Shown: piece after piece, positions 2,568-40,800 of the stretch
Layout of the letters: the number at the start of each line of letters is the position of its first letter
Numbering within the stretch: position 1 is the first letter of the stretch
Assembly: GCF_048128805.1 (NCBI RefSeq)
Contig: NC_136013.1
Location: 3,638,043 to 3,702,042, forward strand
Origin: Centroberyx gerrardi
Lineage: Eukaryota > Chordata > Actinopteri > Beryciformes > Berycidae
Direction of reading: 5' to 3'
Length of the DNA stretch: 64,000 nucleotides
Notes under the pieces: generated by a model
Databases searched by the model: none
Told to the model about the DNA's origin: nothing
The model's input: only the letters and a program-made list of their open reading frames with translations
Position numbers and translations under genes: made by a program

Positions 2568-2573
2568 AATAAA
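2568..2573 (+). promoter_or_regulatory. ahsa1: Proximal polyadenylation signal of ahsa1
   Basis: AATAAA about 280 bp after the ahsa1 stop codon, the first canonical signal in the 3' UTR. A second canonical AATAAA lies at 3185-3190. An A-rich run at 2640-2658 follows the proximal signal. Confidence 0.6.
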
Positions 2574-3184
2574 GAAAGAATCTATTGAACCACTAATGCA
2601 AATTGGCCTCCAGTATACATATTTAATTATGACGAGAGTAAAAAAAAAAAAAAAAAAAGATTTCTTTTATTTGAAAAAAAAAAAAATCGTGTTGCTTTGA
2701 AAATGAATGTTATTTTTTACTTCTTTTATTCTTTCAAGTTTAACTGTAGTAAAGAAGCTTTCAGCGAAGATGCATGTTCCATTTAAAGTGTCAGACGGGG
2801 GAATGACTACTGGATCTGAACTACACTAGTGAACTCTGTCATAGCTAAGCAGTACTGTACCTTCAACTTTGGTTCAGTTTGATTTCCTCATGCACATTAA
2901 CGCCCCGGCGTCGGTCTGAGCCGGGGAACACCGGACGGGATTGGACTTTTAGCAGGAAACGTTAACTCAAATGTACGTAAATGTCGGAACATGTAAATAT
3001 TTTCAATTTCTTATGCAGGTAGCTAGCGTAGCAACTTAAAAAATGAATTGTTTTGCTATATTGGGCCTCAAAATGTAAATTTCCAGAAAAAATAAAATGT
3101 AAATTTCCATAAGGTTTTCAAAACAAAATGCATCTATTTATTCCTCATTTCATTCCTGCATTGTAAAAAAGAAAAGTTTCTTGT

Positions 3185-3190
3185 AATAAA
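3185..3190 (+). promoter_or_regulatory. ahsa1: Possible distal polyadenylation signal of ahsa1
   Basis: Second AATAAA downstream of ahsa1, followed by a T/G-rich stretch. It lies about 90 bp from the opposing TTTATT (AATAAA on the minus strand) near 3279, so the two convergent genes may end almost back to back. Confidence 0.35.
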
Positions 3191-3278
3191 CCAATCCCTG
3201 TATCCACTTGACTGTTTTATTTTTGTGAGTACGTCCTTTAAATTTATGTTACAGCCACAAAGGTTGAAAGGAACTTGT

Positions 3279-4254
3279 TTTATTTATTTACAAAGTATTG
3301 AGAATCTATAATATTTAATATGAAAATATTTGTTTTTTTAAAATGTCAGTTTACAAGTGCTTTAAAAATTAAACACAGTTTACCACAAAGGCCACTATCA
3401 AGCAAAACAAGCACTTCATTTTGTTTTAAAGGGCAAAGAACAGGATTCCTGAGAGATTTGACCCATTTTCACATAATTTTCTCACGGCAAAACAAAAAAT
3501 AATGAGCAAGTTTGTAAAAAATATCTTCTCCACACAGAATGACTTGCTCCTGAAACTGTCCACACTGGCCTGTAGTCAACATGTAAAACAAGATGCACAA
3601 TGTCTAAAATGGTCTGGAAAAGTAATATATCAGCATGGAAAATGTATAGAAACCTTGAAGAAAATTATTCATCTTACCATCTAAACAGTAACTACTAGAC
3701 CAGAGGTTACGTTACAGCATATTCTCAATCCAACTACAAAACAAACAGAAAAACATTTGATATCTTGTAACAAATTCCCTCCTTTTGTGTCATAACCATT
3801 AACAAAAATGTGTTTATCGTATTGTAATTTAAAAGTCTTCATCTTTTTTATATAGCACCATTTTTCTTAATTATACATACTCTTTTCTGCAGTGCAAACT
3901 TTCACATAGCATTCAAAAACAAAAAGGTAAAGGGCTTCATTCCAAAATACCATATATCCATTTATGGAAGAAAAAAAAATATCACTTTAAATTCATCTCT
4001 CAATAGTTCAAAAACTATTATTTGGCAGGCAAAGGTCTTAAAATAGTTAATAACATAAATGTTTTACTTTCATGTCGGCAATCGTTCTGTAAAAGTAGAT
4101 GTCACTTTTTTTTGGTTGATGGTGTCAATCTCCTTCTGGAACAAACTCTTCAAATAAAGAAACTTATAAACAAAAAAAAAACATGATGAAATAAGATGCT
4201 GCTGGAAGTTCACAGCTGTTTAGTCTGGTCGAGGGGGCGGAGTCACGGGCGGAG
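3279..4254 (-). other. Probable 3' UTR of the DRAP1-like gene
   Basis: About 1 kb of AT-rich sequence after the minus-strand TGA at 4257-4255. A minus-strand AATAAA is read at about 3284-3279. The open frames on either strand here are short and low-complexity; I see no coding exon. Confidence 0.45.
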
Positions 4255-7200
4255 TCACAGGCAGATGAAGAGCTCCGACTCCTGGAAGAGGAAGAGGAAG
4301 TGAGTCAGTGAAAAAACCCCACACACGGGGTTTTCAGGTGACGCCCTGAACTCACTCTTTTCAGTTGTTCATCAGTGTTCGTGTCTTTTGATCGAACACG
4401 TGCATCCTGCTCATAATCTTGTTTCCTGGATGTTGTGTGAAAATCCCAGCTTTGTGTCGCCTCATAGCGTCTGAAACGTCTGATCTGAAGGAAGATGTTT
4501 TGGTGGTTTGGTTTGAAAGTTGCCTTCTCTGGATTTTTCAAAATTGTGCTGTAGGCGGTGAAAGGCTAAAACTGAGGGTGTCCTATCCCTTTAACGCACC
4601 CTCTGTCGGCCATGTTGGAGGTCTTCAGCTTTTGGGTGCCAGTGGCTGTGAACAGCTGATTGTTTTTAAATGTCTCAACAGAATGAATTAATTTAATTTC
4701 TGTGCTGTTTTTGACTGGGAACTGATCATTTCATCACTGATCCATCTGATTGATTTAGTGTTTAGATAATGTCAGCTTGTTAGCTAGTGAACCATATCTG
4801 GTCAGCTAACACTGTCTTGTAGTTAAAACATCTGATTAGCACATGATTAGCATGTTCACATTAACATCAGTGTCTTTGCTGGCTAGTTAGCTAGCTAACA
4901 GTTTGTTCAGGTTAAAGGTCCCATATTCTCCACTCTCCAGAGTTTTATTTTGTGTCTTGAGGTCCATTCAAAGCTGTGTGTGTGTGGTGTCATGAACCAA
5001 AAACACTCTCAATCCATTTCTCCACGTTCATTTTCCAGCATCTCTCTGAGCCTTACCAAGAACAGGCTGTTTCTGTCGCCGTGTCTTTAAGGCTCATTAA
5101 TATTAACGACCCCTCTGTTCCGATTGGCTAACCGTTTCGAGAGCGAAACGTGAGACGCCGCGGCCCGGCGGCTACAGGTAGGGAAAACTCTCCGGTAATA
5201 AACGATGACGACCGCTCGACCGCTTTGAAAAAAACACTTTGTTAGTCTATTATTTCTTACAGAAATGATAATGAGCGAACCTTTGTGACGTCACAAAGTT
5301 ACGGAAGTCCAAACGGCTCGTTTAGAGGCTCGCTTTTCTAATATGGATTGTGTGGATTTATTGATACTTTCACCATGTTTAGATAGCACAGACAGACAGT
5401 AGAGACTAGGGCTAAAGACAAGATAGTTTACTGTGTCACAGTAACCTACATTTGGAAACACCGACATGTACCGACCTGCTGCAGTGACCGGCACTGAAAA
5501 TCAACACTAACTGAGACACTGCAGCATAAATCACAACAGGCAGATACTTGCAATATGTCCGTGTGTTTGAAGTACAAAGATGAACACGTACTGCTTTTGT
5601 GTTTTACAGGAAGCCATAGAGTTGAATGTGAGTTTAACTGAAATTAAGTAAATTCAAATTAACAGATAGTGAGTACATACACTGGAGCTGGCGTCGTTGT
5701 CCAGCGAGTCGCGGCTCGGTTTCAGCGGCTTTTCTCCAACTTCAATCGGTTTTTTGACAGAAATTTCCTGCCGTTTTGTCCTGGAAAGGAGACCGACACT
5801 TGAAAATGCAACAAAATGCAATGTTTAGGTTTTGCATCAAGCCTTTCTGAGGTTTTTTACCTGCACAACATGACTTTTCCTCCCTCTAACTGCCCTTTTT
5901 CTATTTAATGTTTGAGCTGGGCGATATGTTTGAAATCAATATCACGATAATCATCAGTTTTTCTTTCAATATCGATATACAGTATATCCAATATGGCTTA
6001 CACTGCATGGTAATGCTAGGTGTGATGCCAAATCTAAGTCTGAAATCTTCAAATAATATTCCTTAAAATGTTTCATACCACATTTTGTAGTTTTTAAATC
6101 AAATTTTGCTTGTTATCATCAATTTAGACAGCAGAATTGTGTATCACAATATCATCATATCACAATATGATTCCACTGAAAGACAATAAACGATAATATT
6201 GAATTACCGCCCAGCCCTATTTGATGTGTTTTTCATGTGTGAATAAACTAAACTCAACTACACCTACTAAGTAATAGTAATAGTCACTGTTGACTATTAT
6301 TATAGTTACATTAGCCATCTTGAACCTGTTTCCTACAGAATAGAAACATGTTCAGAGGATATAATCATCAATTCTGCAAAATACAGAGCAAGGAACATCA
6401 GGTGACACTTTTCCCCACTATCATCAGTGTACAGTGGTTTGAGTAAAACCCTTTTAACGCTGTAATAACTGATGATGAGCGTTTCTCTACCTGTATAAGG
6501 GCCACATGCTGACGCCTCTGTTGTCCCTCTGGGCTGCCGTAGACGCCCGCTCCGCCTGCTCTTTCAGGAAGTGGAAGAGTTTCTCCGACTCGATGCACTG
6601 CTTCCTACACAATACAACTAATACATATTAACTGTACGGCACTTTTAAACACAGTACAGACAATTCAAACAGACAAAACTCAAATGTATTATGTACAATA
6701 TTGTAGTAGAGCTGCACAATGTTTCTATAGTTCAAATGTGTCTTTCAGATTAGTTGGTTAAAACTACTGGTAAACATAATTGTGGAAACAGCTGTAATTG
6801 CTTTCAGCTTTCAGCCTTAAAGCTGCACTAGGCAAGATTTTTATGTTCTATCTTAACTCGTACACTGGGAAATTAAACCTGAAATTGTCTCTTTTTCTGC
6901 AAAGCAACATTGTTTTGTTAAGTATGTGGAGGATAATTGCTATTTTTTCTTTTGTTTTATCCGTTCTAAAAGTCAAACTGAAGAGTTTTGGTCCAAAATG
7001 CAATATCCATGAAAAAAAGTGTGATTCCAATTACTACAAAATGACTGATAGCACAAAATTAAAGCTGCATGAGTCAAGACTTTTATGTAAAAACACACCC
7101 AACAAATCTACCAGCGTTGGATTTTTTCCTCTCTCGTTTTGGTTTCTTTGGTATAAAGCGTCACAGACCGGCCGGTCGGTGAACACGAGCGAGCTGTGTG

Positions 7201-10063: not shown

Positions 10064-13000
10064 ATGTTCCGCTGCCTTCTGTCTGCAGTCTGGTTGTTTG
10101 CCACGTGTCAGGTGTACGGTAGGTGATGTTTTCTATTTATTTCTTATATATTATGTACAGTGATGTGAATTTTGTTCTTGTCTTTACTTGTGTTGTTGTT
10201 ACTGTATCATGTGTCTTATTTACTGTAAAACTCAAAACTGTAAATTGTCAAAATGTTTCTGCCCCAGTGTCACAAAAAATACAATTCCCGTAAATTTACT
10301 GTATTTTCTGACTAAATGTAACAGACTTAATATAACTGACTTAATATAACTGACTTAATGTAACTGACTTAATGTAATTGTAACCTGTAACTGACTTAAT
10401 TTTTAAAGTACATGCACTTTGCACTGGTTTTAAAATTGTGTACACTTCAGTGTCTAGTGTCTATTATGTGTTGTGTGTTGAACACCATGGCACAATACAT
10501 CACATTGTTTAACAATTTACATGATCCCTTACAAATAAATTAAATACATGGATAAATAAATAAGTATTTTTAAAGTGCTGTTTCTGATATGGCAGTGAGG
10601 ATTTAAACCAGTCTGGTCAAAGTATCTGCAACAAACTTGAACTTTTAAACTTTTCCTTCTCTTGCAGGATTCACACTGAGGGAAGATGAGGAGAATTTCA
10701 ACCAGGTAGCGTCTCCATCCAAAACATTTTAAACAGAATTTACAGGGAAAGAAAAGGCTTTTTTTTTCTACATTTCCTTCCTGGTTCTCTCTCATATTAT
10801 CATATTATCACTCTAGGATCGCAGGAATATTTGGTATATCTGTTGTCTTTGACCCTTACAGTGTTTTCAGCTCTTAATGTTGGTGATTTAGGGAATTTGT
10901 AGCTTATTCTGCTGTTGTACTCCTTGTAAGTCACTCTAGATAAGTCAGCTGCATGCTAAAAATGTAAAGGTAAGTTTGTACACAGCAAAATCGTCGGCGT
11001 TAATTTAATTACGAGAGTGTAAAATCAACACCATGCCAAGTGTTTATATGAGCCCACATATGGTTAGAGAGTTGCTAAACCTAAAAGGATGTCATCAGTG
11101 TGGGTTTCAGTGGAGAGTTTTAGTGTCCCATGATGGTCTGAATGCTGTTTCAGAGGCTTTTCCACACTGATAAGAATAACATTCTGGGGGGAAACACTGA
11201 ATACTTGTCATTTTTTGGCATGAAAATGGTCCAATTTAAAGATATTGAATATTGGCACAAAATATCAGCTATCTGCAACTCCAGTAAATAACCCTGCTAT
11301 AAAAACCCATATCAGTCAAACCCTTGTCCACACCCATCAGAAGTTAATTTAACACTCCGCACCCCAGAGTCATATCAGCTCTATGAGTGGACAAACAACT
11401 CTGCTATCAAAATTTATCAACTCCAAGTCACTGTCACTGAAACATCAACACCTGTTAACACTGGGAGATTTGCTGTGTGGTTTTCCTGCAGGAGGTTTTT
11501 GGAGGAGGAGGTTTCCAGCAGGTTTTCCATCCTCCCTTCCAGTGTCCAGACATGAGTCCGTCTGCCTCCGTCCCGACCTCCGGTCAGTGAGGCTTCATCA
11601 TCATCTCAGTCCACATTTGGACATTTAGTAAAGTAACATTATAAAGTAAAACTCACTCAAGTTATTTGCTATTACTTACAAAATAATGTAACATTTTAGA
11701 GGATGCAACCACCTGCATGTTTGAAATATTGAATGTAAACGTGAGGAAACATTTTGGGCTCAAATGGATGGTTACATGTATAAAAAAAAGGCTTGTTTTT
11801 GCACATCAGCTTTTGTAAAAGTATAAAAAATACATCCACAAATGAAAACATTACAGGCACAACTCAACACATTATTGTACACGTTTTTAGATGTGCAACT
11901 GCCAGCCTTTTTTATGCATTTAGATGCACAAATCTAAATGTGCAAAAATTTTATTTTACAGATTCACACATTTGGATTTATGTGCTCAAATCTTTTATAT
12001 AGAGTCACAAACGCTGATCACACAACTACAAGTTAGAAAACATTTGTGAACCTCGCTGTATGCATTCAAAAAACATTCAGCATGTGTTTGATCTGGTATG
12101 TGGGGGTATAGCTCAGTGGTAGAGCATTTGACTGCAGATCAAGAGGTCTCTGGTTCAAATCCAGATGCCCCCTACTATACATATTAGGAGAGAGACCAGG
12201 GTTCAAACCCCTATCTTGCAAACATTTCCTGAATTTCCCCAAGGGGATCAATAAAGTGCTGTCTTATATAAAAGGAGAAGTTTATATATACAGCGTATTA
12301 TCTTCTGCCTTGGACTCTACCTTTGCACTGTATATGAGGTCCTGTTGTCCTCATATAATCTGTCAATGTGAAGTCATTTACATTCAGAAAGCATCTTAAA
12401 TCGTCTTAAAGCATCTTAATTAAAGCACATGTTTAACTAACTGACTGGAAAACACTGATCTGACAAACCTTGCATCTCTTTTGCCAAATATCTGGCTTTA
12501 ATACGTTTTAAGTCGTCTTGAATCCTCCGAGCTTAATGCTTATCAATGGTCGATCATCTTTATGGGATGTCTGTTACCTTATCAAAAATGTTTTTGTTGT
12601 AATATCTGTGTCAGCTTTTATAGATTTATTGTACTTGGCGAATAAAGTAACTCTAATTCTGGCTGCAATGTCCTGAAGGATGTAAAAGACGAGCAAAAGA
12701 GGAAAGTGAAGAGATGTGGTTCAGCTGTCTGTGGGTCAGTGACTTTCCTCTTTGTTTATCTTCTGTTCTAGTTGAATATGTGAAAGCTGCAGACATTAAG
12801 GTCATCGCCGCGCTGGGAGACTCCCTGACTGTGAGTGAAGTTGTCTTACGTTGTTTTGTAGTACGCTCCAGGAAGTATTGCTTTCAGTCAGGAAATACCT
12901 CTCATAGAGTTTTTCCATTGCACAAGCACAGTGCTGCAGCCACACCGGACCTGCTGGGCTTCTTACTGTCAGCAGCGTCTGGTTTTCCACTGTAATTCTG

Positions 13001-16000
13001 TCACGGTTTGGTTCAGTTTGTGTAGAAGTACTGACTACATCCACTGCCAACACGCTTTGAAAGTAGTATGGGGAAAAAATGTGTTACTGTCATGCTGATT
13101 CTCACTTACAATGCTATTATTCTCTTGAGGAAGGATATCTCTGGTTGTGTTTTTGTTGCAGACAGCTATTGGCGCCAACGGCTCTACAATATTGTCAGTA
13201 CCTTTTGAATATCGCCATGTGTCTTGGAGGTAACTGTTCAATTCATTTATTGTAGCTTAATGACTAATGTATCTTATACCAAACCTTATACGTTTTTTTC
13301 TAATACAAATATCACAGGAATCCCTTTTAAACCCGAGCCTGACTAACCCCAACTCTACACCAACTACTGTATATCAGTATCTATATTAACTGATTTATAA
13401 TGTCTGTTTAAAAGGCTACTGATACATTGTGCTTTGTAATGTATGAGTTCATTAACCTTACAGTACCTTATCTCACCTGTCACATTATAGATGTTATTGA
13501 TGTTATTATTAGCCTGACTTATCACAAACTGCGTCCCTTTTCTCTTTATAGTATCGGAGGTTATGGAACTTATCGAGATGTCATCACTCTGGCAAGTGAG
13601 TTAATGTACAGTCAGCAGATTACAGTTTTAGTTATGCAAATGTTTCTCAAAGGCAGAAATAATCTCATTGGTTGAGTTTAACTTCAATGGGCGGAGCCAA
13701 AGAACCACAGTTTCTCTGGCTAAGTAATGTTAGACTGAAGAAAACTGCAATCTAGCCATTACTAAGTTATCTAGGTTAGCTAGTTAGCCTAGCTGACCTT
13801 CTGAGTTCAACCTAGCCATACTAGCCTATAGCTATCTAGGTTAGCTAGTTAGCTAGCTGCTGACCTTCAACATCATGATGCCATGGTTGTGAAAGAATGA
13901 ACAAACAGAAGTCATTGATATTTATAGTTTTTATTTATTTTGACCAGAGTTCCTTCTTTGCCATTCAAGTTTGCTAGTTAGCTAACTTGTGCTAAATTGG
14001 TTCTTTGGCTCCGCCCATTTAGGTTTAACTCAACCAATCAGATTATTTCTGCCTCTGAGAGACGTTTGTATAACTAAAACTCCTGTCTGCTCATAGTAAT
14101 AGCATAGCCTGTTTTCTAACTTGAGAAAACAGTCTATGTAACGTAAAGCATTTTTTAGGAATATGTATAAAATGTTGAGTTCCATCTGTCCAGCTCCTTG
14201 TAGAAAATGATTAACAACCTGAAATTCAAACATATTCTGGTAAATAATAGCCTAATGGCTTAAAGGAATAGAAAATGAAAATTCTGTCATTATCTACTCA
14301 CCCTCATGCCAAATGAAACACAGGTGAAATTTGTTAGTCCATATAACACACAGGGAGGTTGCCAGCACAACTTCGTTGCAGCCTTCTCCAAAACAACTGA
14401 AGTCAATGGGGACCGGTTCTTTAGAGTTCCAAAACAAAAACAGCCAAACAATCACACTGTGAATAGAAAGACCTATACACCATTATTTGTTGCAAATCAA
14501 TCAGCTGTAGTTAAGATTTGCACTAAATTATGGTGTAAATATACTGTAGGTCTTTTTGGAACTCTGAAGAACTGGTCCCCACTGACTTCAGTTGTTTTGG
14601 AGAAGGCTGCTATGGAGTTGTGCTGGCAGCCTCCCTGTGTGTTATATGGACAAACTTCACCTGTGTTTCAACTGGCATGAGGGTGAGTAGATGATGACAG
14701 AATTTTCATTTTTGGGTGAACTATTCCTTTAAGCTTACCTCTCTGCTTTATGAGGATATCGTAGCCAATTTGTTAACAGGTGAACATCTGCAATCACTTT
14801 TTTAAACTCCTTCTGAATCTCTCCTGTGTCGGTTCTTGTTGTTTGCAGATATTTTTAAACTGTTCAACCCCAGTCTGCTGGGTCCGGCCCCGATCATGAC
14901 GATGAGTGGTTATCCTACAACCGTCAACGACACCGGCTTCAACTTCGCCGTCACGGGCCACAACACACTGTAAGGCTCAGACAGTACGGACACAAGGGAA
15001 TTTCACTGGAAAACTGTGGAGGCGATTAATGAAAACCAGTGATGTAAATTAAAGGTCCAATCCGTAGACTCAACACTAACAAAACAAACCACTGAAAGTC
15101 AAAACCCAAAGCCAAAGGTGTTTTCTTTTTTTTTAATTCAAAATTTAAATCGTCAAAAAAATAAAAATACAGATTTGGGCTTTAAGAATGATAATGAGAT
15201 AGGCAGCTATGTATATGGATCATATCTGTATATCATTACTCTCAGAGGAAACCTTTATATCTCTAAGAAATAGACTTTTTAGCAAGGAAGAAATAACTGC
15301 CTGGCTTTTACACTGAGTGGTTTGAGGTTTTTTTTAAATATACAAATGGTTTTGAAGGGATTTCACAAACTCAAGGGTCATGAAACTTACTCAACACGTA
15401 CAGATTGGTGTACATTCTCACTCACAAGTAAAAAAAAACGTGAAAATCCCTCAAATTGGACGAATGAGTTTTTAATCCAACCATAATTTTCATAACACAA
15501 AAAACCATAGTGAGTAAAACTGTGACGAGATGCCTTAACAAATGCTTTACCCGAGGCTCAAAGATCAAAATAATTACAGCTGCATATTATTTGATACTGG
15601 CATGATAAGACTTTATTGCTGTGTGTGTTGTCTTCACAGGAACGTCTCTGACCAGATAAGACACATGATAGACACGTTCAAATCATATCCAGTAAGTCAC
15701 AGGGTTTCCTTATTTTGCTTCACATTTCACATTTTGTCCAATCAGTAAAGTCTTTTTTTTTTCCATGAAACTGAGCAGAGTTTCTTCTTCTCAGGGTCTG
15801 AGCTTCCAGCAGGACTGGAAGCTCGTGACGATGCTGATCGGCATGAACGACATCTGTGATTACTGCAAAGACAAGGTAAAGGAGAGTTCAGTGTCTCTTT
15901 GATGTCCAGTACTTTGTTCTGAAAACCCTGAATTTGTTGTATCCACTTTATATGGCCGGGCGATAATTCAATATCATCGTTTATCGTCTTTCAGTGGAAT

Positions 16001-18877
16001 CATTTGGTGATGACATGGTGATTTTGGGAAATCGTGACACAAAATTCTGCTGTCTGAACTGATGATAACGAGCAAATTTTATTTAAAAACTCTGACAAAA
16101 TGAGGTATGAAACATTTTAAGGAATATTATTTGGAAATTTCAGTTTTGTTTGACACCTAACATTACCATTCGGTTCAATGGGATGAACATTAACTTGATT
16201 ATTTAACACGGGATTTTGCATACGTCATGATATATATCGATATCGAAAAATCCTTACGATTATCGTGATATTGATTTTAATCATATCACCCGGACCTATC
16301 CTGTTCTATCCAATGGAAGTGTTTCAGTCCAAAATAAGAGTGACCATTTGAAAAACTTTTTTGGGACAAAATTATTGCTGAATGTAAAATACATCGTGGG
16401 CTAGGGTTTGACTGATAAGGGATTTTGAAGGACTGATATCAATAATTTTAGACTGAAGTCGTCGATAGCCGATATTTTATGGCTATATCTTTAAATTTGG
16501 CCAGTATTCAGTGTTTCCCCCCAGAATGTTATTCTTGTCGGGGTGCAAAAGCCTCTGAAACAGCATTTAGAGCATCATGGGACACTAAAACTCTCCACTG
16601 CAGGTATTCAGAAGTAGGGGAAACTCTGGGATTCATCAGGCCTTTAAACGAAGAATTCATTTATAAAAAACATAACTGAACATTTAAATGAATAAATAAA
16701 ATGCACAAAGAAAACAGTTTTCTGTAGCTGTGATCAGGAAGAAACCTTCATCATATCAGAGGCGGACGACTTGACCGACCACTAAGGCCAATATCGCCCG
16801 ATATATCAGTCTAATCCAATTATACATTACTTACATAAGTTATGACTAATCTGACAAAAAAAATGAAAAAAAATATTAATTATTGGCTGATTAATTTCAT
16901 GTAGCAATTTCTTAAGATTGAATCATACAGGTTTCCCACAGGCCTTGAAAAAAGTTTGTGGATTTGAGAAAAATAAAATGTAAGGCCTTTAAAGTTTTAG
17001 AAAATGAATGGATAGCCTTGAAAGTACTTAGACTTTTTAACTAAAATGCAGCATTTAAATTCATCAATATGCCTCACTCCTCTCATCATGAGTAAAAAAT
17101 TAAGCCTCTGATGCTTAATTCTGACCGTTGTCGTGTCTTACCCCAAAACATTGCAATTTTGAGTCCTTGAATTTCACCAAACAAGAACCATGAAAGTCAA
17201 TAAAAAACTCCTTGAATTTTGTGTGAGTGTGTGAAACCTGTTCATCGTGTTTTGGAATGAAACCCTTCAGTTTAATTGCTGTCCACTCCTCCTTTTTCAC
17301 CTCATTAAAACTCTCTCTCTTCCTAAACCGCCCGCAGACTCTCTTCTCCCCCGACAACTTCATCCACCACATGACTGAGGCGCTCGACCTGATGATGGAC
17401 GAGGTGAGATTTGGGTAACTTTCATAACTCAGGTCAAGATAAGGTAATATTTTTTTTTAAATATGGGAAAAACTACAAAAGTACTACAAATTGTAGTACG
17501 TTTTAAAGTTTCGAAGTTGCAAAACGACATCACAGATTTGATCCTATATATTTTAGAGAAATTTAAGGATAAACTTCTGGTAATGATGTTTATTCCCAGA
17601 CAATTGATATGTAGTATTTTGGAAAGGAACTCTTTGATTCTATTGTATTTACCACGACAGTAAAAGCAGCTTGGTGGCTTGCTAACTGCTCTGTCTGTTG
17701 GTTTCCAGATCCCCAGGATGATTGTGAATGTGGTTCAGATTCTTCCCATGAAGCCGCTGAGAGAAGTTCAGAAACCCAACGTGGGCTGTCAGCTTCAGAG
17801 GTTTGTTACCTGTCCACTTTCCTCCGCATGTTTTCTACCTGTTGGATCGAACCTTATAGGCCCAAAGTGAAGCAGCAGTATCTGCTTTCTGTGTGTTTTA
17901 AAAGTAAAATGCGAGGATTAGGGTTTAGCTTAATATGCTGTTAAATGATATGCAGTACCAACAAGAAGTGGATCGTTCAGACAGATAAACTTTCTTAGAT
18001 ACATTTTCTTAGTTTCATTACTCATGCAGTTACTGCCCTTAAGACACTGAAGCCTGAAGTGATTTGACCTGTGGTGAAATGTGACCATGTACAGTGTGTG
18101 TGGCAGAGGGATTTAACAAATTCTTAATTATACGGTATGAAATATGGTAATTGATGTAGTTTAAAGTCGAGATGAAACCGAGTATTTCCGAGTGAAACAG
18201 GAAAGACAGGCGGGACATAACGTTGTGAGGAATTTGATTTGAACGTTGAAAAGTGGGCGTGTCATAACACCCGAAGACACACCGAAGTACCATGCTGTTG
18301 CTAGCTAGCTAACTAATGAATCTTAGCTCTGTGCGCTAAAAGTTGAAGATTGATTGATGGGTGGATGTCGTGATATTATTGGTTGAAATTGGTTGAGTCC
18401 AGCTTACGTAAGCACACGGCATATTTTGTTTTACAGGAAGAAAACATGATTGAATTTTGATATAAGAATACAAAGAAATTGATTTTTTGTATTTTTTTTG
18501 GCATATATTGTTAAATAGGTGCACAATATGACCGGGGATGTGATCTAAAAGGGTTAAAGGGGCATTTTTCATTTCATCTCGACTTTAAATGAACTAAAGT
18601 ACTGTGGGTGTCGTATATTTCCACTGTGTTTTGACAGGATCTGAAACTGATCTTAGTTCAGCACTCACTAAGAAACTCAATACGTATGGATCAATATATC
18701 TTTTATCAGCATCTATTGAGATTACAAACCAAAACTGAGTTGATAATCTGACAATTTGACAAAGTGATAATCTGATGATCTGTTAATCTTCTCCCAGGAA
18801 ATTCTGCTCTTGTCTGGTTCTACCTGAAGAAAACTCCACCGAACTGAAGGAGCTGGTGGAGATGAACGTTGAATTCC

Positions 18878-18916
<39 letters not shown>

Positions 18917-19298
18917 TTGATGTCAGGAAAAACTGACAACATGATGTATTACATTAGTCTGCAGCAGTTTGTCTCTGAGCTGTTTTTAATGTATTTTTTA
19001 AAACAATGGGAGCCGAACCTGCAGTAAACATCTAGTGAAGAGCTAATATACCATCATGCAGAACACTGGAATAATAATACTGCTCTGTCATTGGCTTTTT
19101 TGGTGATATTATGGTCATTTGATGCTGTGAGACAGAGAAAATCTTACTTTATTGCCCCTTTAACTCTTTCCTTCATTTCCCTTGTTGATAGAGGAGACTA
19201 GAGAAGCTTCTGCACAGCGATCGTTTCTTCAAAGACGACTTTGCTGTGGTTCTGCAGCCCTACTTAACATACGCAGGACCACCGAGGCTCTCTGTAAG

Positions 19299-19350
<52 letters not shown>

Positions 19351-21541
19351 GAGCTCTGGCACCATGTTGTTCTTCTCTCTGTAAAACACTGTGCTTTGCT
19401 AATGAATTTTCATTCAGAGTCTATATTTAGTAGAGCAAACCTGCATTAATTATTTTTCTGTGCAAGAAATATAAACAAGGACTAATTGTTTTAACATTTA
19501 ACATTCAGCGTCTGAATTGTAGAACTGAAATATCTGCAGCTTTCAAAATAACACACTTTCTGCACAAACCGGTGTAGTTAGATTTTCAATATCACAAACG
19601 GAAATTGCTTTTAATTATATTTAAGCCCTTTGATTGACAACTTGTTGGCCCTCTCTTAAGTCCACAAAATCCATCTGTCTTTCTAGTGTCCATGCACATA
19701 GTTGAATACTGAATTTTGAATGTATAGAGTGATATATAGTGTCAGTATGTATGTGAATCTCTGTAATTGGTCAATATGTTTCTGCACCAATGTGACAATG
19801 GGACAAAATCAAATACGTTCATTATACTTGTTGTCGATTAATGCGATTCTGATTCAAAAGAAGATATCAAAAGTCTGGTCTACAAAAACAACCAGGAGCC
19901 TTGGTGTGGCTTGATTTTCCTGCTTTAGTTATTTATTCCAGAGTTAAATATCTTTTGTGGTTTTGATTCTGACGTTTGTCTAATTCATCTAATTCAACTT
20001 CAGAACGGGTCGCTCGACTTGAGTTTCTTCGCAGCCGACTGCTTCCACTTCACCATTAAGGGACATGAGGAGCTGGCAAAGGGACTGTGGAACAACATGG
20101 TGAATTCCTGATCATAGTTTCACACTGTACTCTTAAATAGAGTGTGGATTTATCGACAGTTCAGTCTTATCAGGCCTTGTGTTTGAATTTCTAAGGTCTG
20201 ATAGACTCGAATGTCAATAAATTCATAATCCTTGTGTAAGCAGAGTGAGTCTGTTTCTAAGTGAAAAACACCCTTCTACCTCTCTCCTTAGCTGTTATTT
20301 TTAATCTCTTCTTCTCTTACATCATTCTCTGGTCAAAGGGAACTATAGCTCTGACCCTTGACCTTCTTACTACTGGTTGCTTGTAATGTTGGTGATCCAG
20401 GAACTGAAGCTTATCCTACTGTTTTACTCACCAGATAAGGGCATCGGTTAAATGCCTAAAATGTAAATGCAAGACTCTGTTTCTTGTATTTTCTCCAAGG
20501 CACCAACATATCAAAGACTGCTGGATATGTATAAAGGCTTTGCAGTTATGTCACAAATTTCTCAGCAGCCATGTCTGGCTCCATCATGAGGTCCAGTGGA
20601 GAACTGGCTGTGTGCAAAAAATATCTAAATATATAACAACCAGGCTAGAAACAGAGAGCAGCTGAGTCAGCTTGTTGTGGTGTGGCTGTAGATCCATTCA
20701 GTAACGTTCTCAGTAAAAGTGAATAGTGTGATAAGGTGGATTTGGTTACTGTGACACAGTAAACTGTCTTGTCTTTAGCCCTAGTCTCTACTCCAAAACA
20801 CTCTGAGTTGTAGCTTGAGAAGAGTCAGCTCAGTTAACCTGAACAAACTAACTAGCCAGCAAACACACTGATGTTAATGTGAACATGCTAACGCTAGCTG
20901 CTACTAGATATATTAGCTAGTGTGCTAATCAGATGCATTTACAACAAGACAGTGATGGTTAGCTGACCAGATACAGTGATGAAATGATCAGTTCCCAGTC
21001 AAAAACAGTATAGATATTAACCGTCTATTCAATTCTGTTGAGACGGACAAGTTGTACATTTAGAGACGAAATCAGCTGTTCACAGCCACTATTGCACAAG
21101 AGCTTTGCACCTCCAATATGGCCGCCAGAGAGTGAGTTATTATCACCTGATGCTCACTATACTAAATCAGCACAACACTGTACACATCAGACTATGCATC
21201 TATGCAGAGTGTTGAGTTTCTGACTCCCACAACTCATCGAAATGATGTTTCCTCAGTTCCAGCCGGAGGGAGGGAAAGAGATGATAAAGACTTTCTCAGA
21301 GCCTGTAAAACTCATCTGCCCACCCAAGGTACGAACTGACTGACATGTTGAGGATTTTGATGTGAAATGGATTGAATTTAATTGAACTGAATTGAGTTGA
21401 ATGTATTTTCTGTCATTATTCTAGGAGCATCCGTTCATCTACACCAGGCCCAGAACTGTGTCGTCTGCACCGGCACTGAAGCAACTCTCCATGACTCTAA
21501 TGCTACCTCTGTCTGTGTTTGTCCTGTTTCATCCTCTATAG
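10064..21541 (+). CDS. plb1: Phospholipase B1-like GDSL lipase, single domain, 411 aa
   Basis: PLB1-type enzymes are SGNH hydrolases that release fatty acids from phospholipids and lysophospholipids at the outer cell surface. Exons: 10064-10118, 10668-10705, 11492-11582, 12772-12830, 13162-13229, 13552-13595, 14849-14969, 15640-15691, 15795-15875, 17338-17403, 17709-17800, 18798-18879, 19192-19293, 20004-20099, 21257-21328, 21425-21541; all phases agree. Residues 1-19 form a signal peptide (MFRCLLSAVWLFATCQVYG). Block I is ALGDSLT with nucleophile Ser79; block II SIGGYG (104-109); block III GMND with Asn194; block V DCFHF with Asp329 and His332. The end, about residues 388-411 (LSMTLMLPLSVFVLFHPL), is hydrophobic and fits a GPI signal or membrane tail. 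Human PLB1 has four tandem repeats in about 1450 residues; this gene has one, so it is a single-repeat relative. A MITE begins at the base after the stop. Confidence 0.88.
10318..10395 (+). repeat. Short tandem repeat, unit about 16 bp
   Basis: Four to five imperfect copies of 'taactgacttaatata' in intron 1 of the phospholipase gene. Confidence 0.6.
10846..10975 (+). repeat. Retroposon-tail-like repeat, copy 1
   Basis: Sequence 'tgttggtgatttaggg ... ttctgctgttgtactcc ... gtaagtcactctagataag ... aaaaatgtaaa'. Related stretches are at 20350-20465 and 47810-47945, with partial ones near 41450 and 43150. It matches the general form of the common teleost 'taagtcgctttggataaaag' retroposon tail (from memory, not searched). 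Confidence 0.45.
11093..11285 (+). repeat. Dispersed repeat family C, copy 2
   Basis: Shorter relative of 7763-8040 in intron 2 of the phospholipase gene, same orientation. Confidence 0.6.
12102..12173 (+). tRNA. tRNA-Cys(GCA)-like gene in an intron
   Basis: Seventy-two bases fold as a full cloverleaf: acceptor GGGGGTA/TGCCCCC, D arm GCTC..GAGC, anticodon stem TTTGA/TCAAG with loop CTGCAGA (anticodon GCA, Cys), and T arm TCTGG/CCAGA around TTCAAAT, discriminator T. A box (TAGCTCAGTGG) and B box (GGTTCAAATCC) are intact. Compared with the usual vertebrate tRNA-Cys as I remember it, the T stem differs by paired, compensating changes. No T-run terminator follows directly. A second B-box-like 'gggttcaaaccc' lies at about 12200, then a retroposon-like tail to 12260, so it may be the head of a SINE rather than a free-standing gene. 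It lies in the sense strand of intron 3 of the phospholipase gene. Confidence 0.75.
12174..12262 (+). repeat. SINE/LINE-like tail behind the tRNA-Cys
   Basis: Contains 'gggttcaaacccc' and then 'aatttccccaaggggatc' followed by 'aataaagt', a tail I recognise from many teleost retroposons. A reverse-strand version ('actttattgatccctgagg') is at about 35958. Confidence 0.45.
13609..14096. repeat. MITE with about 90-bp inverted arms, plb1-like intron 6
   Basis: The left arm (13609-13709) and right arm (13996-14096) are inverted copies. Shared runs include 'ggcagaaataatct' and 'gggcggagccaaagaacca'. The centre carries repeated 'taggttagctagttagc'. The left end lies 13 bp after exon 6 (donor at 13596). 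Confidence 0.75.
14260..14732. repeat. TTAA-flanked long inverted repeat (piggyBac-type MITE)
   Basis: Ends TTAAAGGAATAG... and ...CTATTCCTTTAA, with TTAA at each tip. Arms of about 170 bp match in inverted form: 'ctcaccctcatgcca', 'ttctccaaaacaactgaagt', 'cagcacaact'. The left tip lacks the 'ttcacccaaa' present in the right arm. It lies in intron 6 of the phospholipase gene, so it would be transcribed as a long hairpin. Confidence 0.8.
15954..16297 (-). repeat. MITE family A, copy 2
   Basis: Reverse-orientation relative of 5914-6218 in intron 9 of the phospholipase gene; starts 'ggccgggcgataattcaata'. Confidence 0.65.
16405..16640 (-). repeat. Dispersed repeat family C, copy 3
   Basis: Reverse-orientation relative of 7763-8040 and 11093-11285; shares 'catgggacactaaaactctc' read on the plus strand. 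Confidence 0.6.
16928..17240 (+). repeat. MITE family B, copy 1 (TIR cagggttcccaca)
   Basis: About 313 bp in intron 9, from caggtttcccacaggccttg to gtgtgaaacctg. Interior marks 'aaaatgaatggat' and 'tttgagtccttgaatttcac' recur at 28014, 29563 and 40005. Confidence 0.7.
18880..18913 (+). repeat. (GT)17 starting at the exon 12 splice donor
   Basis: Thirty-four bases of pure GT; the first GT is the donor dinucleotide of plb1-like exon 12. Confidence 0.95.
19300..19348 (+). repeat. (CA)n just inside intron 13
   Basis: Forty-nine bases of CA repeat, starting six bases after the exon 13 donor (gtaagt). It is complementary to the (GT)n at 18880-18913 on the other side of exon 13. Confidence 0.95.
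20350..20465 (+). repeat. Retroposon-tail-like repeat, copy 2
   Basis: Relative of 10846-10975 in intron 14: 'ttggtgatccaggaactga', then 'cttatcctactgttt', then 'taaatgcctaaaatgtaaat'. Confidence 0.45.
20740..21140 (-). repeat. Dispersed repeat, inverted copy of 4600-5465
   Basis: Intron 14 of the phospholipase gene. Reverse-complement match to 4600-4915 and 5390-5465, without the 4914-5310 block between them. Confidence 0.6.
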
Positions 21542-21820
21542 CAGTGATTCTCAACCCTTTTCATATCAAGGACCCTAATTTAGCACACATTTGGACCCCC
21601 ATTTGATGAGATTTTGTCTCTCGGACCCAAATCTGAGAATATTTTTATTGTTAGATATGATTTTGTCCAGAATTCCATGACTATCTGTATTGTAGGTAGA
21701 GAGATAACAGTGAAGCTATGATCAAAATAATCATTCTTCTACCCCCTGGGGACCCCCTGGAACGCCCTCAAGGACCCCTGGTGGTCCCCGGACCCCACAT
21801 TGAGAACCACTGCTCTATAG
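21534..21820. mobile_element. hAT-type MITE with perfect 8-bp TSD at the plb1-like stop codon
   Basis: Element 21542-21812 (271 bp) starts CAGTGATTCTCAACC and ends TTGAGAACCACTG. It is flanked by CTCTATAG at 21534-21541 and again at 21813-21820, an exact 8-bp target duplication as hAT transposases make. The last three bases of the left duplication (TAG) are the stop codon of the phospholipase gene. The interior has no long reading frame, so it is non-autonomous. A related terminal fragment is near 22650-22686. Confidence 0.88.
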
Positions 21821-23200
21821 GACAACAGGCAGCAGAGCAAGGCATTAACTCTGCCGGGGTTGGGGGTTTGATTCCCACCCTCAAAACATAGGCTATACAC
21901 TGGGTGCTTTGGATAAAAGTGTTCAGCCATATGTATTATGTTATATTGATTGATGATATGAGCGAGTTGTAAACTACTTTATAAATTTGGGAATTGAAAC
22001 GTTACAAAACAATCATAAGTAGTTGTGTATAACTCTCATCACAAATCCTCAGAGACTAATGATTGCATCTTCAATTACCAAAACAAAATTATTATTATTT
22101 TTTTTATCAATATGGTGATCAATATACTGTGTCCGTTACAGTGATGTGTACTATTCTGTGATTAAAATATTTTTTTTAAATTCTACATTTACTGGTGTTC
22201 ACTGACCCATTTGTTTTCTTTTGTTTTTCATGAGCAAATTAAATGATGATATTTCAACTTCTTGAACTACTGGCCACTGTTCTTATTATGTTAGTCCATT
22301 GGTTATTTAAAGCTTCATGTAGCCTATCATGCATTCTAAAAAATATTTTTTTCTCATGACTCAAGATATCTGGAAGGTCAATCAAGCAAAATGTACACAG
22401 CTTCCATGCTATTAAACTAGAAACCTGAATCATTATTTTCACCCTACTTTACTTTTGGCAAGATACTGACACCCTAACAAAGCCAGTCGCTTCTAGATAC
22501 CAGTTTCTTCAGAATAACTGAATCTTCCTGCGGTCTATCTGTTGCTCTTGACTCTCAAACATCTTTTAGTAGTCTTTCTCGTACAATTCTGTGATTGGCA
22601 TAAATTCTAGATAACTAACTGAACAAACTGAAATGTGGGGACTGTTAAATCCCCCCTAGAGGACCCCTACTTTGAGAACCACTGCTCTAAACAATAATGT
22701 ACTAGTATGTATTATTGTAGTCTATATGTGTGGATGAGGGTCTGTAGTTATCATGAATGATAACTCATCAGTAAAACGTAATTTGTCATTGGTTGATAAC
22801 TACTCATTAAAACAGAATTCATCATTGGAGGATAATTCATCATTAAAATACATTGTCACTGGTTGATAATTAAAACATAATCTATGACTGTTGATCCATC
22901 AACATGGTTGTTAATTCATCATTGGTTAATAATTCATCATTAAAACCATTTGATATTAGCTGATAATTCACAGTTGCAACATAAATCATCTTTGGTTGGT
23001 TGATTTATCATTAAAACATAATTAAAGTAGAGCATCATCCAACAGGTTTCTACTGATTTGAATGGAAGTCTATGCAGTAAGGGCCACGTCAGTTTCCAAT
23101 AACGAGCACTTATCAATAATGATCAATACTATCGGTTGTGCAGTGGCGCGTGGTGGCCACCAGAGGCAGCAGAGTCACTGTTTACAGCTCGAGACCAGCA
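21821..23200. other. Intergenic / 3' flank between plb1-like and larp1b
   Basis: AT-rich. Candidate ATTAAA signals for the phospholipase mRNA are at 22161 and 22238. A second hAT-end fragment lies at about 22650-22686 and a degenerate tandem array at 22740-23030. No coding exon is seen. Confidence 0.5.
22740..23030 (+). repeat. Degenerate tandem array of 'ttcatcattaaaac' units
   Basis: Six or more diverged units combining 'cattggttgataattcatc' with 'attaaaacataat', spaced about 30-55 bp apart. They look like a decayed minisatellite. Confidence 0.55.
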
Positions 23201-23647
23201 GGCTCCACGAGCTGTTACTTTCTCTGTCAAGTAGCTAGCGTGGAGTTGAAATCAGGGTTGAGAGGAGGTCGCTGTAGTTAGTTATTAAAAAGTTACCGAA
23301 AGTCGCTGCTGAACCAGATTTGTGTCTACGGTTTACATGGTGACTAACTCCATGCTTTGAGGTAACTACTTGTTGATATGATACAGCCGAGCAGGGAGGC
23401 GAAAAATAACATTTAGCTCGGCTCGCTGGTTGGCTCTAGCTTGCTGACTTCTGCATGGTAGCTAGCTAGCTAACGTTAGCTGCAGGAGCTACTTGGCTAG
23501 CTGGCTAGCGAGGTCCAGCCCAAAAGTTGTTTACCTCAAGTTGTGGTTGTTGTCACCCCTGTACTTTTCAGTATTTTTTCTGGGATTAGAGTAAATACCA
23601 AAATTCACACTGGATTTAACATTGTGTGTGGTTAGGAAACTAGCAGG

Positions 23648-26600
23648 ATGTCCACCGAGGTTGAGTGTAAGGTTGACTCAGGTTTGACAGCGACCAGCTC
23701 CACTGGGGGAGAGGAGAACCAAAACAAGTCCGAAGAGGCTCCGGTGCAGAAACCAGACAGAGAACAAGGAGAACAGGGCCAGAAAAAGACGGAAAAACAA
23801 CATCTAGATGGGCAGAACACCGAGGTAGCGAAGAGCCCGATGGACCTGCACAAGAAATGCAAAGAAAACGACAAAGAAAACGACCAAAATGCTCAAAGCA
23901 GCAACGTTGACTCGGCTGAAACGGTGAAGCGAAAAGTTGTTGAAGCGCCGCCGCCGAAAGTTAACCCGTGGACGAAGAGAACCACGGGCAGAGTGTCCAA
24001 CAACACTATCAACTCCAGCTCCCAAGAGAAAGGTAAGGGCGTTTGAGTGAGTTACATATTGTTGCGACTAAACCACACAATATGGTTACAGCATGTTACA
24101 ACAGTCTGCCCACTGACACTGCACCACTTTCCCGTATGTTACAGCATTTGAGCGTGGTGTTGCACGACTTTTGACAGCTTTACTATCCAGAAAGTCGCAT
24201 TAATCTGGGTGCACAGTTTGTGAAGTTTGTCTTTGGGCTTAATTGCGTTGAATGAAGTGCATAAACGCAAATGTCAGCAGAGTCAAAGGTGTTGATGGTG
24301 GCATGTTGCCCCCATCCCCCTCTGCTCGGATTGCTCTGGAGCACCACGTGTTGATTGCTGACAACTGCTACTTCTTTAGCCTGTAGCTACCAGCAGCTAG
24401 CTTTCTCACTGCTTTCCCACATTGGAAACGCCAGAATCCGAGTACCAAGCTCATGTCTGGGTGAACACAGCACAAGGGAAGCAAAATCTGCAAAAATCAG
24501 CTTTGAGTTTACTGCTGGGTTCACTCACTGTGAGCTAGACAGCCAGCTAACTCCTGCTGCTCTAGAGACACGTTTTGTGTGTCCAATGGCCTCGCTGCCT
24601 GCAATTCCTCCCACCAGCCACTTCTTCACTGTCAGTAGTAAAGCACAAGTCTATGAACTAGGTGGCTGGACAGGTGTCAAAGTTAATGGTTTAAATTCAT
24701 GAAACCAACCACAACTAACATCGCCTTGTAGCATTTAATGATAGACTACATATCCAATATTTTAGGTAATTATCCTATTTTAGCTAGGGCCACGTTTTAA
24801 CTGGTTATTGATCTGGCAGATGGCACTGAAATAAGAAAATGGCTTTATTTAAATCCACATTTCAAATTCTGGCCTATTTGAACTGTCTTGTGTTTGTGTG
24901 TCGTAGAGCAGAGACAGAGCGAGAAGGCTATATTTGAAGTGTGTGGCTCTAGTTGAGTGCACAGGCATCATTTTACAGCGTTACTGTACAGCCACTGATG
25001 TGGGTGTATGTCTGTAGACGAGCGAGGCCTACACCCATTCATGCAGAAGCCTGGGCCCTGTGTCTCTTATCAAGCCGACCATCCTCTGTGGAGCGATAGG
25101 GACTGTCAAACCCCAGTGTGCCACTCCCAGGCTACAGGAGCAGCTGGCTGTAGAAACGCCGCCACATACCGCCACTGGCTGTACAAAAAACACCCTGAAC
25201 TAGTTCAGTAGCTAAACCTAGGGTGCTGGTGGGGGAGGGAGAATATTTATGCATACTGTATTGACAGAAATTCCTAATGCTGTACAAAGACAACATAGCA
25301 TTCAAGTGTGGATGACTTGACTTTTTAGTCCAGTAGTGAGCGAGCTTCTGGGCCAGGAACTTACTTATTGGAGTTATTAAATTCTGATTATTAGGATTAA
25401 TAAGATGCTACGTTCATTTATTGACTCTGTATCCACAGATCAACAAAACCCTCTGAAAGTCGTCCGCGCCAGCAAGCCCAGGACGAGAAAATCCAGCAAG
25501 GTAATGAGCTTTTTTTTTTTTTTTAAATGCTTCCAAAGCTACTGGGGTCAAGCTTTTAGAAATGGCAGAAGCACGAGAATAACACCAGGCCCAGCTGTCA
25601 AAATATGCTTGATGGTGGCTTTAGTGTTATCAGTTTGTTTCGGTAATTAAGTTAGACATGGATTAGCCCTGTATCAACTTTGACATTAAATAAAATACAT
25701 GTACATGTTGCCAGTTTGGTGTATTATTTAATATCTCTGCTAATTTGTGAAGTTGTTCTGTTTAATAGAGTCACAAACAAATCACATGTGATAAGGGATG
25801 GTTGTGTTGGAGCATTGCCTCTCTCTCATTTGCAAATTAACCAAAATATTTGGCTCCCTGAGGTGATCCTCAGAAGATCACATGTTCATATTTTGCCGGT
25901 GTAACTTTGCTCGGCTGCTGGCACTTGACGCAGGATGGGAACGTAACACCTGCCGCCAGCCAAATGTTGGTTTGGTTGAAGCTGTGGCTGGTAATTTTGT
26001 TTACTTTCCCAACCGCTTTTCCCACAGTGATTCCTTTAAGTTTCATCTTTATTACAAAAATGTCTGAATGTAGATATTGGCAGCTCTTAAATGGTATGCT
26101 CACACTATCTGTGAATGAACACAAGCAACTGAATTCAAATAATTCGGATGATTTTGAAGCAGGGAAGTGATGTTGTCATCTTAAGTGAGGACAGCAGGAA
26201 ACAAATTTGCCAGTCACTGTGTCTGTTCTGTGGGTTTTTCATGCTAATGTATTGTATATAAGTATGTCTAAGGTTACACTTGCCATTTCAATACAGTTTT
26301 TCTCATCTGATCACATTAGGACAAACTTTACTTGACCCTCCCAAATTGAATTTTGCCTGCATTTAAATCTGACGACCCAGAATGCATCCTGGTGACACTT
26401 CATGATCAATTCAAGTCAAAATAAAATGTCAGAAGTGACAAGTTACACTAAGGCTGCACAATACTGACAATCATACTATGATTTTATTTGCCGCGTTTTG
26501 CAATTGCTGCAGCTTTTGTCTACATAATTTATTTTCAGTACCTGACAAAAATATTGAAAATAGATCGGTTGGGGCCAGGTAAGATGGTCATGCTTAAGAT

Positions 26601-37800: not shown

Positions 37801-40800
37801 AGCGCAGCGAGTTGGCGCCGCTCAGCCTCCAGGCGCCGCCGCCGCAGGCCGAGCCCGACCAGGAGGAGCTGGACTTCCTGTTCGATGAGGAAATGGAGCA
37901 GATGGCGCCCAGGAAGAACAGGTTCACCGACTGGTCCGACGACGACGACTCGGACTACGAGCTGGACGACCACGACGTCAACAAGATCCTTATCGTCACG
38001 CAGACCCCTCCCCACCTCCGCAAGCACCCCGGTGGCGACAGGACGGGCAACCACGAGTCCCGCGCCAGGATCACCGCCGACCTGGCCAAAGCCATCAACG
38101 ACGGGCTGTATTACTACGAGCAGGACCTGTGGACGGGCGAGGAGCAGGCCGAGTGCAGCAAGGTAAGGCAGAGGGTCGAGAAATGTGTCGTGGTCTGGGT
38201 TTCAAAAAAAAACCAACTCAATTTGTGCATTGAAATTTTGTTTTAAGGCGTCAGAACGTAGTGAAAAGCTTAAAATTTTGGATTGGAACAATGGGATCTT
38301 ATGGTATTTTTACTACGAAAACCAATTGAATGTGGCCTGATTCTATTTAGAATAGCAAACGTATACAAATGTTACACAGAAAATAATTTACTCTAGTAAA
38401 ATGAGTTTCCAACAGAAACGGTATCAAAAGGTATTATTCTAGAATCACTATCAGAAGCGTAATTGTAAGTGAAACATACCCACCTACAATTGCATATTAT
38501 TTAGATTTTTTTTTTTACTTTTTTCCATTTAGAGACCCATTACTTGATGAATGCTTGAACACACATAACTTACTAAACAGACCTGGGTCAAATAGTATTT
38601 GTGCACTTTTTATGGGTGGTTTTAGCCTATTTGCCAGATGGGTGGGACAATTTCAGTTGACAATTAACTGGAATTGCACCAATGTGGTAAACCTGACCCA
38701 TCTGGTACTGGTACAATTTTGTTGAAAGCGCTGTTTGACCCAAGTAGTAGAGGAGAGCACCAAAGGTAGCGAAGGGTAAACTACAGGTAATTTGTACGCA
38801 GCCATGTGTTTCCTGTCAGGTCTGAACACGCCAGCTCCTCCATTACGCTGCCGTTCACATTCACACAAGATCCTCATGAGTCACGTTCACTGCAGAGGGA
38901 CTTATGGGCCGTTTTCCCCCATCAGACACTTCAGTCTCATCTCTAAAGTTACTGCAGTCTTCTTAATTAGACCTTTAGGGGCTTTTGACTAATAATAGTT
39001 TGTACTGTCACACTGACTTGTGTCCCAAGGCTTCATCAAACCAAGTTGGGCGTTAGATCTTGACAAGACATTTTTGTTAACACTTTTGGCATTTAGCCGC
39101 AACTCTTGTCCAGAGATACATTTCGTGCAACACTAGAAAACCCTTACATTCCTAGATTATCGACATTAAAAGCACCCAAGGAGTGCAACAGTCTTAGTCA
39201 AAGCACCCAGATATTAGATCAATTAGTCAGATCAATTCCTTTGAATGCTTGTCTATGATCTCTGTAGGCAAACAGGAGGGGAAAAAATATGTTTTCTCTC
39301 TGGCTCTTGTTCCCTATGGTCCTGTGCTATTTTGGCCGTTTGTTGTTACTTATAGTTTGTAGTAGCAGTGTGTGAACAGAGGGGCTAATGTTAGCGTCCA
39401 GCTGTCCTACAGTCAGTAAGCCAGACTACACTGCAGGCTTGTGGGCCTTGGCTGCGTTGCATTCCAAAAAATGTGTTCACTTCCACAATCCCTCTCTTTC
39501 CTTGAATCAGCCGCTTTCTTACCACCTGTGTTTTGTTATTATTATTTTTTTTATATTTATTTTACCAGGGAAGGTTTCAGCTCTGGCCTGCTTCACTATC
39601 ATTGAAATAAGACATTAACACAAACACAGTCTTCCACTGGCTGCTCACTTAACTATCAGATCTGTTAAGAGGAGTGAATGAGGAGACAAGCTAGTGGACA
39701 AATTTCACAGACTAAAAATTTAGGTGAAACCCCGGTGTTTCTGCTGTTTAGGCGTCAGAAGCCGAGCCAAGCCCCCCGCTGCAGCTCAGACCCAGGACAT
39801 CTGACATGAACACGTAGTGACAGAGCTGTTAGACCACATAGATACTGCCAAAAATAGGCCACTATTTAGCGCCCAGTATACGAGCCTCCTCCGAACTACA
39901 TGTGTGTGGCACAGCTGCCGCCAGAGTTGACCCTCTTTTTGGATGGCTGCCTCCTCTGTAGACACTTTGTGCTGGAACATTATAGGAACACAGAACAGAT
40001 AAATCAGGTTCCCACAGGTCTTTAAAATCCTTTTAGGGTTTGTGAATTTGATGGAAATTAGATAAGGCCTTGAAGGTTTTTGAAAATGAATGGATGGCAT
40101 TGAAAGCGCTTGATTTTTTTTATTAAAATTGAGTAAAATATAGACTCAGCTCTCTGTGCCTCTCTCCATCCTGGGGTCGACACTTCACATCCTGAGGAAA
40201 ACCCTATTATGGATATTTTTTCAAATGATGAATGATATCTTGACTCGGCAAGAAAATGAGTAAAAAATGAGGCTTCTATGATGTCTATTTTCGACCACAA
40301 AACATGCCAATTTTGAGTCCTTGAATTTATTTCAACAAACAAGACGTACGAAAGTAATTAGAGAAGTCTTTGAATTTGAAGGATAAGGCCGGTGTTTTTT
40401 AATGCATTGCTTACTGTCAACAAATCCTATGAAAATAACAAAATCAGCAATGATTTTGTTACAGCCGGCTGTAAACACTTTGCGATCTCAGGAAAGTAGT
40501 TCCAAAATAGTCCCCGGCGTAATGAAGAATTTGTTCCCATTTGAATTTGATTTGGTAATAACTACAACAGCCTGACTTTTCATGGTAACAGTTAGCGATT
40601 TTTAAATTTTTTTATTTCAAGGTTTTTAGCTTACAATTGGAGCCAATGACTTCCAGGTTGACGGCTAAAAACGGTACGTGGGAAGTCGGAAAGTAACGGG
40701 AGTAGAGCAAACGCATTGTTGATTTTGTTATTTTCATAGGATTTGTTGACTGTAAGCAATGCATTAAACAACACCAGCCTTATCCTTTAAAGTCCAAGTG

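What the first reader, a model, noticed from the sequence alone, without database searches (positions are those of the whole stretch)
21534..21820. hAT-type MITE inserted exactly at a stop codon
The 271-bp element has inverted ends (CAGTG.. / ..CACTG) and an exact 8-bp duplication CTCTATAG. The left duplication contains the TAG that ends the phospholipase frame, and the first base after TAG is the first base of the element. The gene therefore kept its own stop and C-terminus, but its entire 3' UTR now starts with a transposon, and a second copy of the same stop context lies 279 bp on. Precise landing at a stop codon is a rare geometry and could change 3' UTR regulation.
Basis: seen in the sequence. 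Interest (0 to 1): 0.7.

Follow-up and report, generated by a model that had tools for sequence, protein, structure and literature searches.

The report
hAT MITE abutting a stop codon
A small, common jumping-DNA fragment sits exactly where a phospholipase gene appears to end, most likely because its preferred landing sequence happens to contain the letters of a stop signal; the protein end is unchanged and the event looks ordinary apart from its neat geometry.

Summary
A 271-bp element (21542-21812) with 12/13-bp inverted ends lies between two exact copies of CTCTATAG. The left copy ends in a TAG that closes an open 350-codon frame over 13 AG/GT-bordered exons of a GDSL lipase (PLB1 by recall). 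The last exon itself is only moderately supported, and no transcript was seen.

The element belongs to a multi-copy hAT-type MITE family of the same genome: 58 match rows from 40 scored of 2,600 candidates. It differs by 4.1% from the consensus of eight copies.

The "rare geometry" has a simple likely cause. Duplications of 5 of 7 other copies read give the palindrome CTCTAGAG. CTCTATAG is the best 8-mer within 1 kb and 11th of 63,714 in the window. The preferred target holds TAG, and the 8-bp duplication preserves it.

A regulatory effect was not tested. No related species were available, and the genome tools answered one search. Verdict: new member of a known kind, low interest.

The parts
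21542..21812 (+). non-autonomous hAT-type MITE, 271 bp
   Evidence: 12/13-bp inverted ends and exact 8-bp flanking repeat; dispersed copies in the same genome; 11 substitutions in 271 against the consensus of eight copies
21534..21541 (+). left target-site duplication CTCTATAG; its last three bases are the TAG stop
21813..21820 (+). right target-site duplication CTCTATAG
21425..21541 (+). probable last coding exon of the lipase gene (38 codons plus TAG), ending in a hydrophobic tail
   Evidence: AG acceptor and matching phase; weak 7-residue resemblance to the recalled mammalian PLB1; 15-residue stretch of mean hydropathy 2.19, seen in 33 of 862 chance frames
12772..21541 (+). span of the 13 recognised exons of the PLB1-like GDSL lipase gene (upstream exons not traced)
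   Evidence: open 350-codon spliced frame with AG/GT borders; Pfam PF00657, E 8e-14, on residues 5-168 of the last 235 aa
21539..21547 (+). TAG-CAG-TGA: gene stop followed by an in-frame TGA made by the element's first bases
   Evidence: all 8 copies aligned begin CAGTGA in this orientation
22661..22692 (+). lone right end of a related hAT element with flank CTCTAAAC (22685-22692)
   Evidence: weak E-values 0.046 and 8e-4; the flank is the second-best target 8-mer within 1 kb of the empty site
21821..21935 (+). possible degraded tRNA-type SINE (B-box-like and tail-like motifs, recalled)
   Evidence: motifs seen by eye; ARAGORN and Rfam found no tRNA there; the genome search for its copies did not complete

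Best explanation
A hAT transposase acting in trans moved a short internally deleted element (MITE) into the palindromic site CTCTATAG. That site happens to overlap the end of a lipase gene so that its last three bases are the TAG stop. The 8-bp staggered cut and fill-in duplicated the site, so the stop and C-terminus stayed unchanged and the element became the first 271 bases of the presumed 3' UTR. The transposase's own preference for nTCTAnAn, which contains or adjoins TAG, is enough to explain the exact landing. Shown: inverted ends, exact duplication, dispersed copies, target preference, open frame. Inferred: trans-mobilisation, timing, that the stop is the one used, and that the element is transcribed. 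The most likely effect on the gene is none or slight: a longer 3' UTR and a backup TGA.
For: Exact structure. Dispersed copies: 58 match rows, 40 of 2,600 candidates scored; 20 rows span both ends in one piece, the window copy included. Of 8 copies read, 3 have identical flanking 8-mers, 2 agree at 7/8, 1 at 5/8, and 2 (L004, L008) show none. A matrix from 5 of the 7 other copies (L004 and L008 left out) gives CTCTAGAG; CTCTATAG ranks 11 of 63,714 and 1 of 2,001 locally, robust to leaving out each copy (3-43, and 1 or 2). Eight-bp duplications and the patterns nTnnnnAn and nnnTAnnn are published for hAT transposons (passages of PMC10368747, PMC3517528, PMC3499496); CTCTATAG fits both. The gene frame is intact.
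Against: The preference matrix rests on five insertions, chosen among the copies most similar to the window copy. Two of seven other copies showed no duplication. By the same leave-one-out test the other copies' own sites rank lower (28 to 4,104 of 63,714), so CTCTATAG is an unusually good fit. No autonomous partner was sought successfully, and no empty site was seen.
Confidence: 0.82

Rival explanations
1. Selection kept this insertion because it helps the gene: the in-frame TGA one codon after TAG and the stem that begins at the stop codon limit readthrough or change mRNA fate.
For: TAG-CAG-TGA against the empty site, where 16 sense codons follow before the next stop. The folded element (z -3.88 against 100 shuffles) pairs the A and G of the stop with the second duplication. 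Selection for extra in-frame stops is reported in several eukaryotes (abstracts of PMC1088959, and PMC6764699).
Against: Any inverted-repeat element folds well. CAGTGA is the family's own end (8 of 8 copies), so the second stop comes free with the geometry. No expression, conservation or population data.
Confidence: 0.05
2. The true coding end lies elsewhere: the last exon is spliced differently and the TAG is not used, so the geometry is incidental.
For: Mammalian PLB1 (recalled) has a longer transmembrane and cytoplasmic tail, absent here and not found downstream (best score 28, reached by 56 of 200 shuffles). Homology of the last exon is weak (24 of 200 shuffles reach it), and Pfam coverage ends before the last two exons.
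Against: Acceptor AG, matching phase and an open frame; hydrophobic C-terminal tail at the expected place, seen in 33 of 862 chance frames.
Confidence: 0.13
3. The MITE family or its transposase targets gene ends as such, beyond the sequence of the target.
For: Only this one insertion.
Against: The local sequence preference already singles out this site. Genomic positions of the other copies relative to genes were not tested.
Confidence: 0.02

Closest known systems
hAT-superfamily MITEs (for example Mar of Drosophila, PMC3517528, passages seen)
   Same: 8-bp duplication, short inverted ends, no coding capacity, many copies, duplication centred on TA
   Different: different ends and host; autonomous partner not identified here
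hAT-Charlie-type elements of vertebrates (recalled)
   Same: ends CAGTGGTTCTCAA and target nTCTAGAn as I recall them
   Different: no transposase or library consensus compared here; the name rests on recall
Tandem (additional) stop codons, as in yeasts (PMC1088959, abstract seen)
   Same: second in-frame stop close behind the first
   Different: here it is brought by a transposon end and sits at the second codon after the stop; no evidence of selection

Membership tests
hAT MITE | 8-bp target-site duplication | tested here: met
   exact at this copy; 5 of 8 copies read agree at 7 or 8 of 8 positions, 1 at 5 of 8, 2 do not
hAT MITE | short terminal inverted repeats, CAG start | tested here: met
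   12 of 13 positions
hAT MITE | hAT-type target preference | tested here: met
   matrix consensus CTCTAGAG from 5 other copies
hAT MITE | many homogeneous non-coding copies | tested here: met
   58 match rows from 40 of 2,600 candidates, two length classes; 271 bp is too short for a transposase
hAT MITE | autonomous hAT partner with the same ends | not tested
   no such search was sent; the genome tools were busy
hAT subgroup (Ac or Buster) | nTnnnnAn versus nnnTAnnn | tested here: inconclusive
   the sampled duplications fit both patterns
hAT-Charlie | similarity to a Charlie consensus or transposase | not testable with these tools
   no repeat library on hand; name recalled
phospholipase B1 (PLB1) | GDSL lipase domain | tested here: met
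   PF00657, E 8e-14; GDSL, GxND and DxxH-type blocks present in the spliced frame
phospholipase B1 (PLB1) | transmembrane segment with cytoplasmic tail | tested here: inconclusive
   hydrophobic tail only; no tail found downstream by recalled sequence

The most novel reading that the evidence does not exclude
Because the target palindrome nTCTAGAn carries an amber codon on both strands and the duplication rebuilds it, this hAT group would hit TAG stop codons far more often than chance and leave the proteins intact, giving many genes transposon-born 3' UTRs and, in one orientation, a ready-made TAG-CAG-TGA double stop. From five insertions the matrix gives TAG about 18-fold over random at positions 4-6 of the duplication and 5-fold at positions 6-8.
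Probability: 0.15. Interest if true: 0.45.

Novelty: new member of a known kind. Interest (0 to 1): 0.17.

Why it matters
As a single case it is a clean example of how a transposon's target sequence, rather than the gene, can set an apparently meaningful position. It also makes a genome-wide question easy to ask: do transposons whose target contains TAG accumulate at amber stop codons, where the duplication protects the protein?

Tried and rejected
Decayed gene: at first two inner exons seemed missing, which would have made the lipase a pseudogene. They were then found at 13162-13229 and 15640-15691; the first by clear resemblance (0 of 200 shuffles reach the human-like score), the second mainly by splice sites and phase, since its resemblance is weak (93 and 21 of 200 shuffles reach the two scores). 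Pseudogene rejected for the part traced.

Other copies in the window: none full-length by blastn or nhmmer. SINE downstream: no tRNA by ARAGORN, and Rfam gave only a sub-threshold snoRNA match (21.7 bits against a cut-off of 52); copy search unanswered. No PDB relative was found by sequence (one chance match, E 0.61). Pfam found nothing on the last 94 residues alone. Paper searches for the end sequence (5 papers; titles and abstract starts do not concern transposons) and for insertions after stop codons (8 papers, 7 listed, listing only) gave no matching case. Simple chance estimate: with 2,600 copies, 25,000 genes (assumed) and 779 Mb, 0.08 exact stop-abutting insertions and 0.5 with the stop anywhere in the duplication; these ignore target preference and the number of copies is only a candidate count.

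Full report
What is there. At 21534-21820 the window reads CTCTATAG, a 271-bp element, CTCTATAG. The element begins CAGTGATTCTCAA and ends TTGAGAACCACTG, 12 of 13 positions complementary. A scan of the whole window for exact 8-bp repeats around 12-bp inverted ends found 2 pairs; ten block-shuffled windows gave 2 in all, so the pattern alone is slightly more than chance. The family evidence below settles it.

The family. The first look gave 2,600 candidates, of which 40 were scored, giving 58 match rows. Twenty rows span both ends in one piece (one of them from base 2), the window copy included; one row runs 21-271; nineteen cover 1-201 or 1-199, most with a second piece further on, which is a longer variant; the rest are 18 short pieces. 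Eight copies (the best-scoring, the window's own included) were read. The window copy differs from their consensus at 11 of 271 positions, the others at 3.2% to 11.9%. No date is derived, because the eight were chosen by similarity.

The target. In 3 of 8 copies the flanking 8-mers are identical, in 2 they agree at 7 of 8, in 1 at 5 of 8, and in 2 (L004, L008) no duplication is seen. From the five usable other copies (L002, L003, L005, L006, L007; window copy, L004 and L008 left out) the consensus is CTCTAGAG. In the joined-flank window CTCTATAG scores 11th of 63,714 8-mers and first of 2,001 within 1 kb. Leaving out each copy in turn gives 3rd to 43rd, and first or second locally. As a control, the other copies' own sites rank 28 to 4,104 under the same test. 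The second-best site within 1 kb, CTCTAAAC at 22685-22692, directly follows a lone right end of a related element at 22661-22684. Published hAT patterns are nTnnnnAn (Hermes, PMC10368747, passage) and nnnTAnnn (Buster type, PMC3517528 and PMC3499496, passages). CTCTATAG satisfies both.

The gene. Thirteen exons from 12772 to 21541 splice into a 350-codon open frame with AG/GT borders. The last 235 residues match the GDSL lipase family (PF00657, E 8e-14, residues 5-168). The name phospholipase B1 rests on recalled mammalian sequence, against which two stretches score far above shuffles (88 and 111 against shuffle maxima of 37 and 35). Two pieces resemble it only weakly: the exon at 15640-15691, and the last exon, where the match is seven residues. 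Frames of 38 or more codons after an AG occur at 632 of 3,419 AG sites outside the gene; a hydrophobic tail as strong as this one occurs in 33 of 862 such frames of 30 or more codons. I therefore take the TAG as the probable, not proven, stop.

The junction. After insertion the frame reads TAG-CAG-TGA; at the empty site TAG is followed by 16 sense codons before the next stop. The second stop is part of the family's end (8 of 8 copies begin CAGTGA in this orientation). As RNA the element folds better than shuffles (z -3.88), as an inverted repeat must, and the A and G of the stop pair with the second duplication. Neither fact shows a function.

Reading. The simplest account is an ordinary hAT insertion at an excellent target that happens to include a stop codon; the duplication kept the stop. 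By simple chance 0.08 such exact cases are expected for 2,600 random insertions and an assumed 25,000 genes; the sequence preference raises the use of sites ending in TAG about five-fold. The bolder reading, that TAG stops are a general sink for this group, is not excluded and is easy to test with the full genome.

Limits. After the genome tools did not answer again, so copy number, a larger target sample, paralogues of the gene, copies of the downstream sequence and the autonomous element remain untested. No related vertebrate genome and no transcripts were available. The host's identity was not established.

Noticed in passing
40401-40765: A second structure with exact 8-bp flanking repeat AATGCATT and inverted ends GCTTACTGTCAACAAA / TTTGTTGACTGTAAGC; may be another MITE, though ten shuffles also gave two pairs in all.
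   Followed up: no
22661-22692: Lone right end of a related hAT element with flank CTCTAAAC, the second-best target within 1 kb.
   Followed up: partly
18880-18915 and 19294-19330 (approximate): The 5' splice sites of two successive lipase exons abut microsatellites: the donor after 18879 is the start of a GT repeat, and the donor after 19293 is followed within 8 bases by an AC repeat.
   Followed up: no
21821-21935: Sequence after the element resembles a degraded tRNA-type SINE (recalled motifs); not confirmed.
   Followed up: partly
21425-21541: The lipase ends in a short hydrophobic tail (mean hydropathy 2.19 over 15 residues) without a cytoplasmic part, which could be a GPI-anchor signal; inference only.
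   Followed up: partly
23636-24046: Open frame of 136 codons that recalls the N-terminal part of LARP1 (name recalled).
   Followed up: no
20634-21170 (approximate): Part of the intron before the last two exons is itself repetitive: 75% identity over 565 columns with the flank of locus L002, and 69% with window 4592-4915.
   Followed up: no
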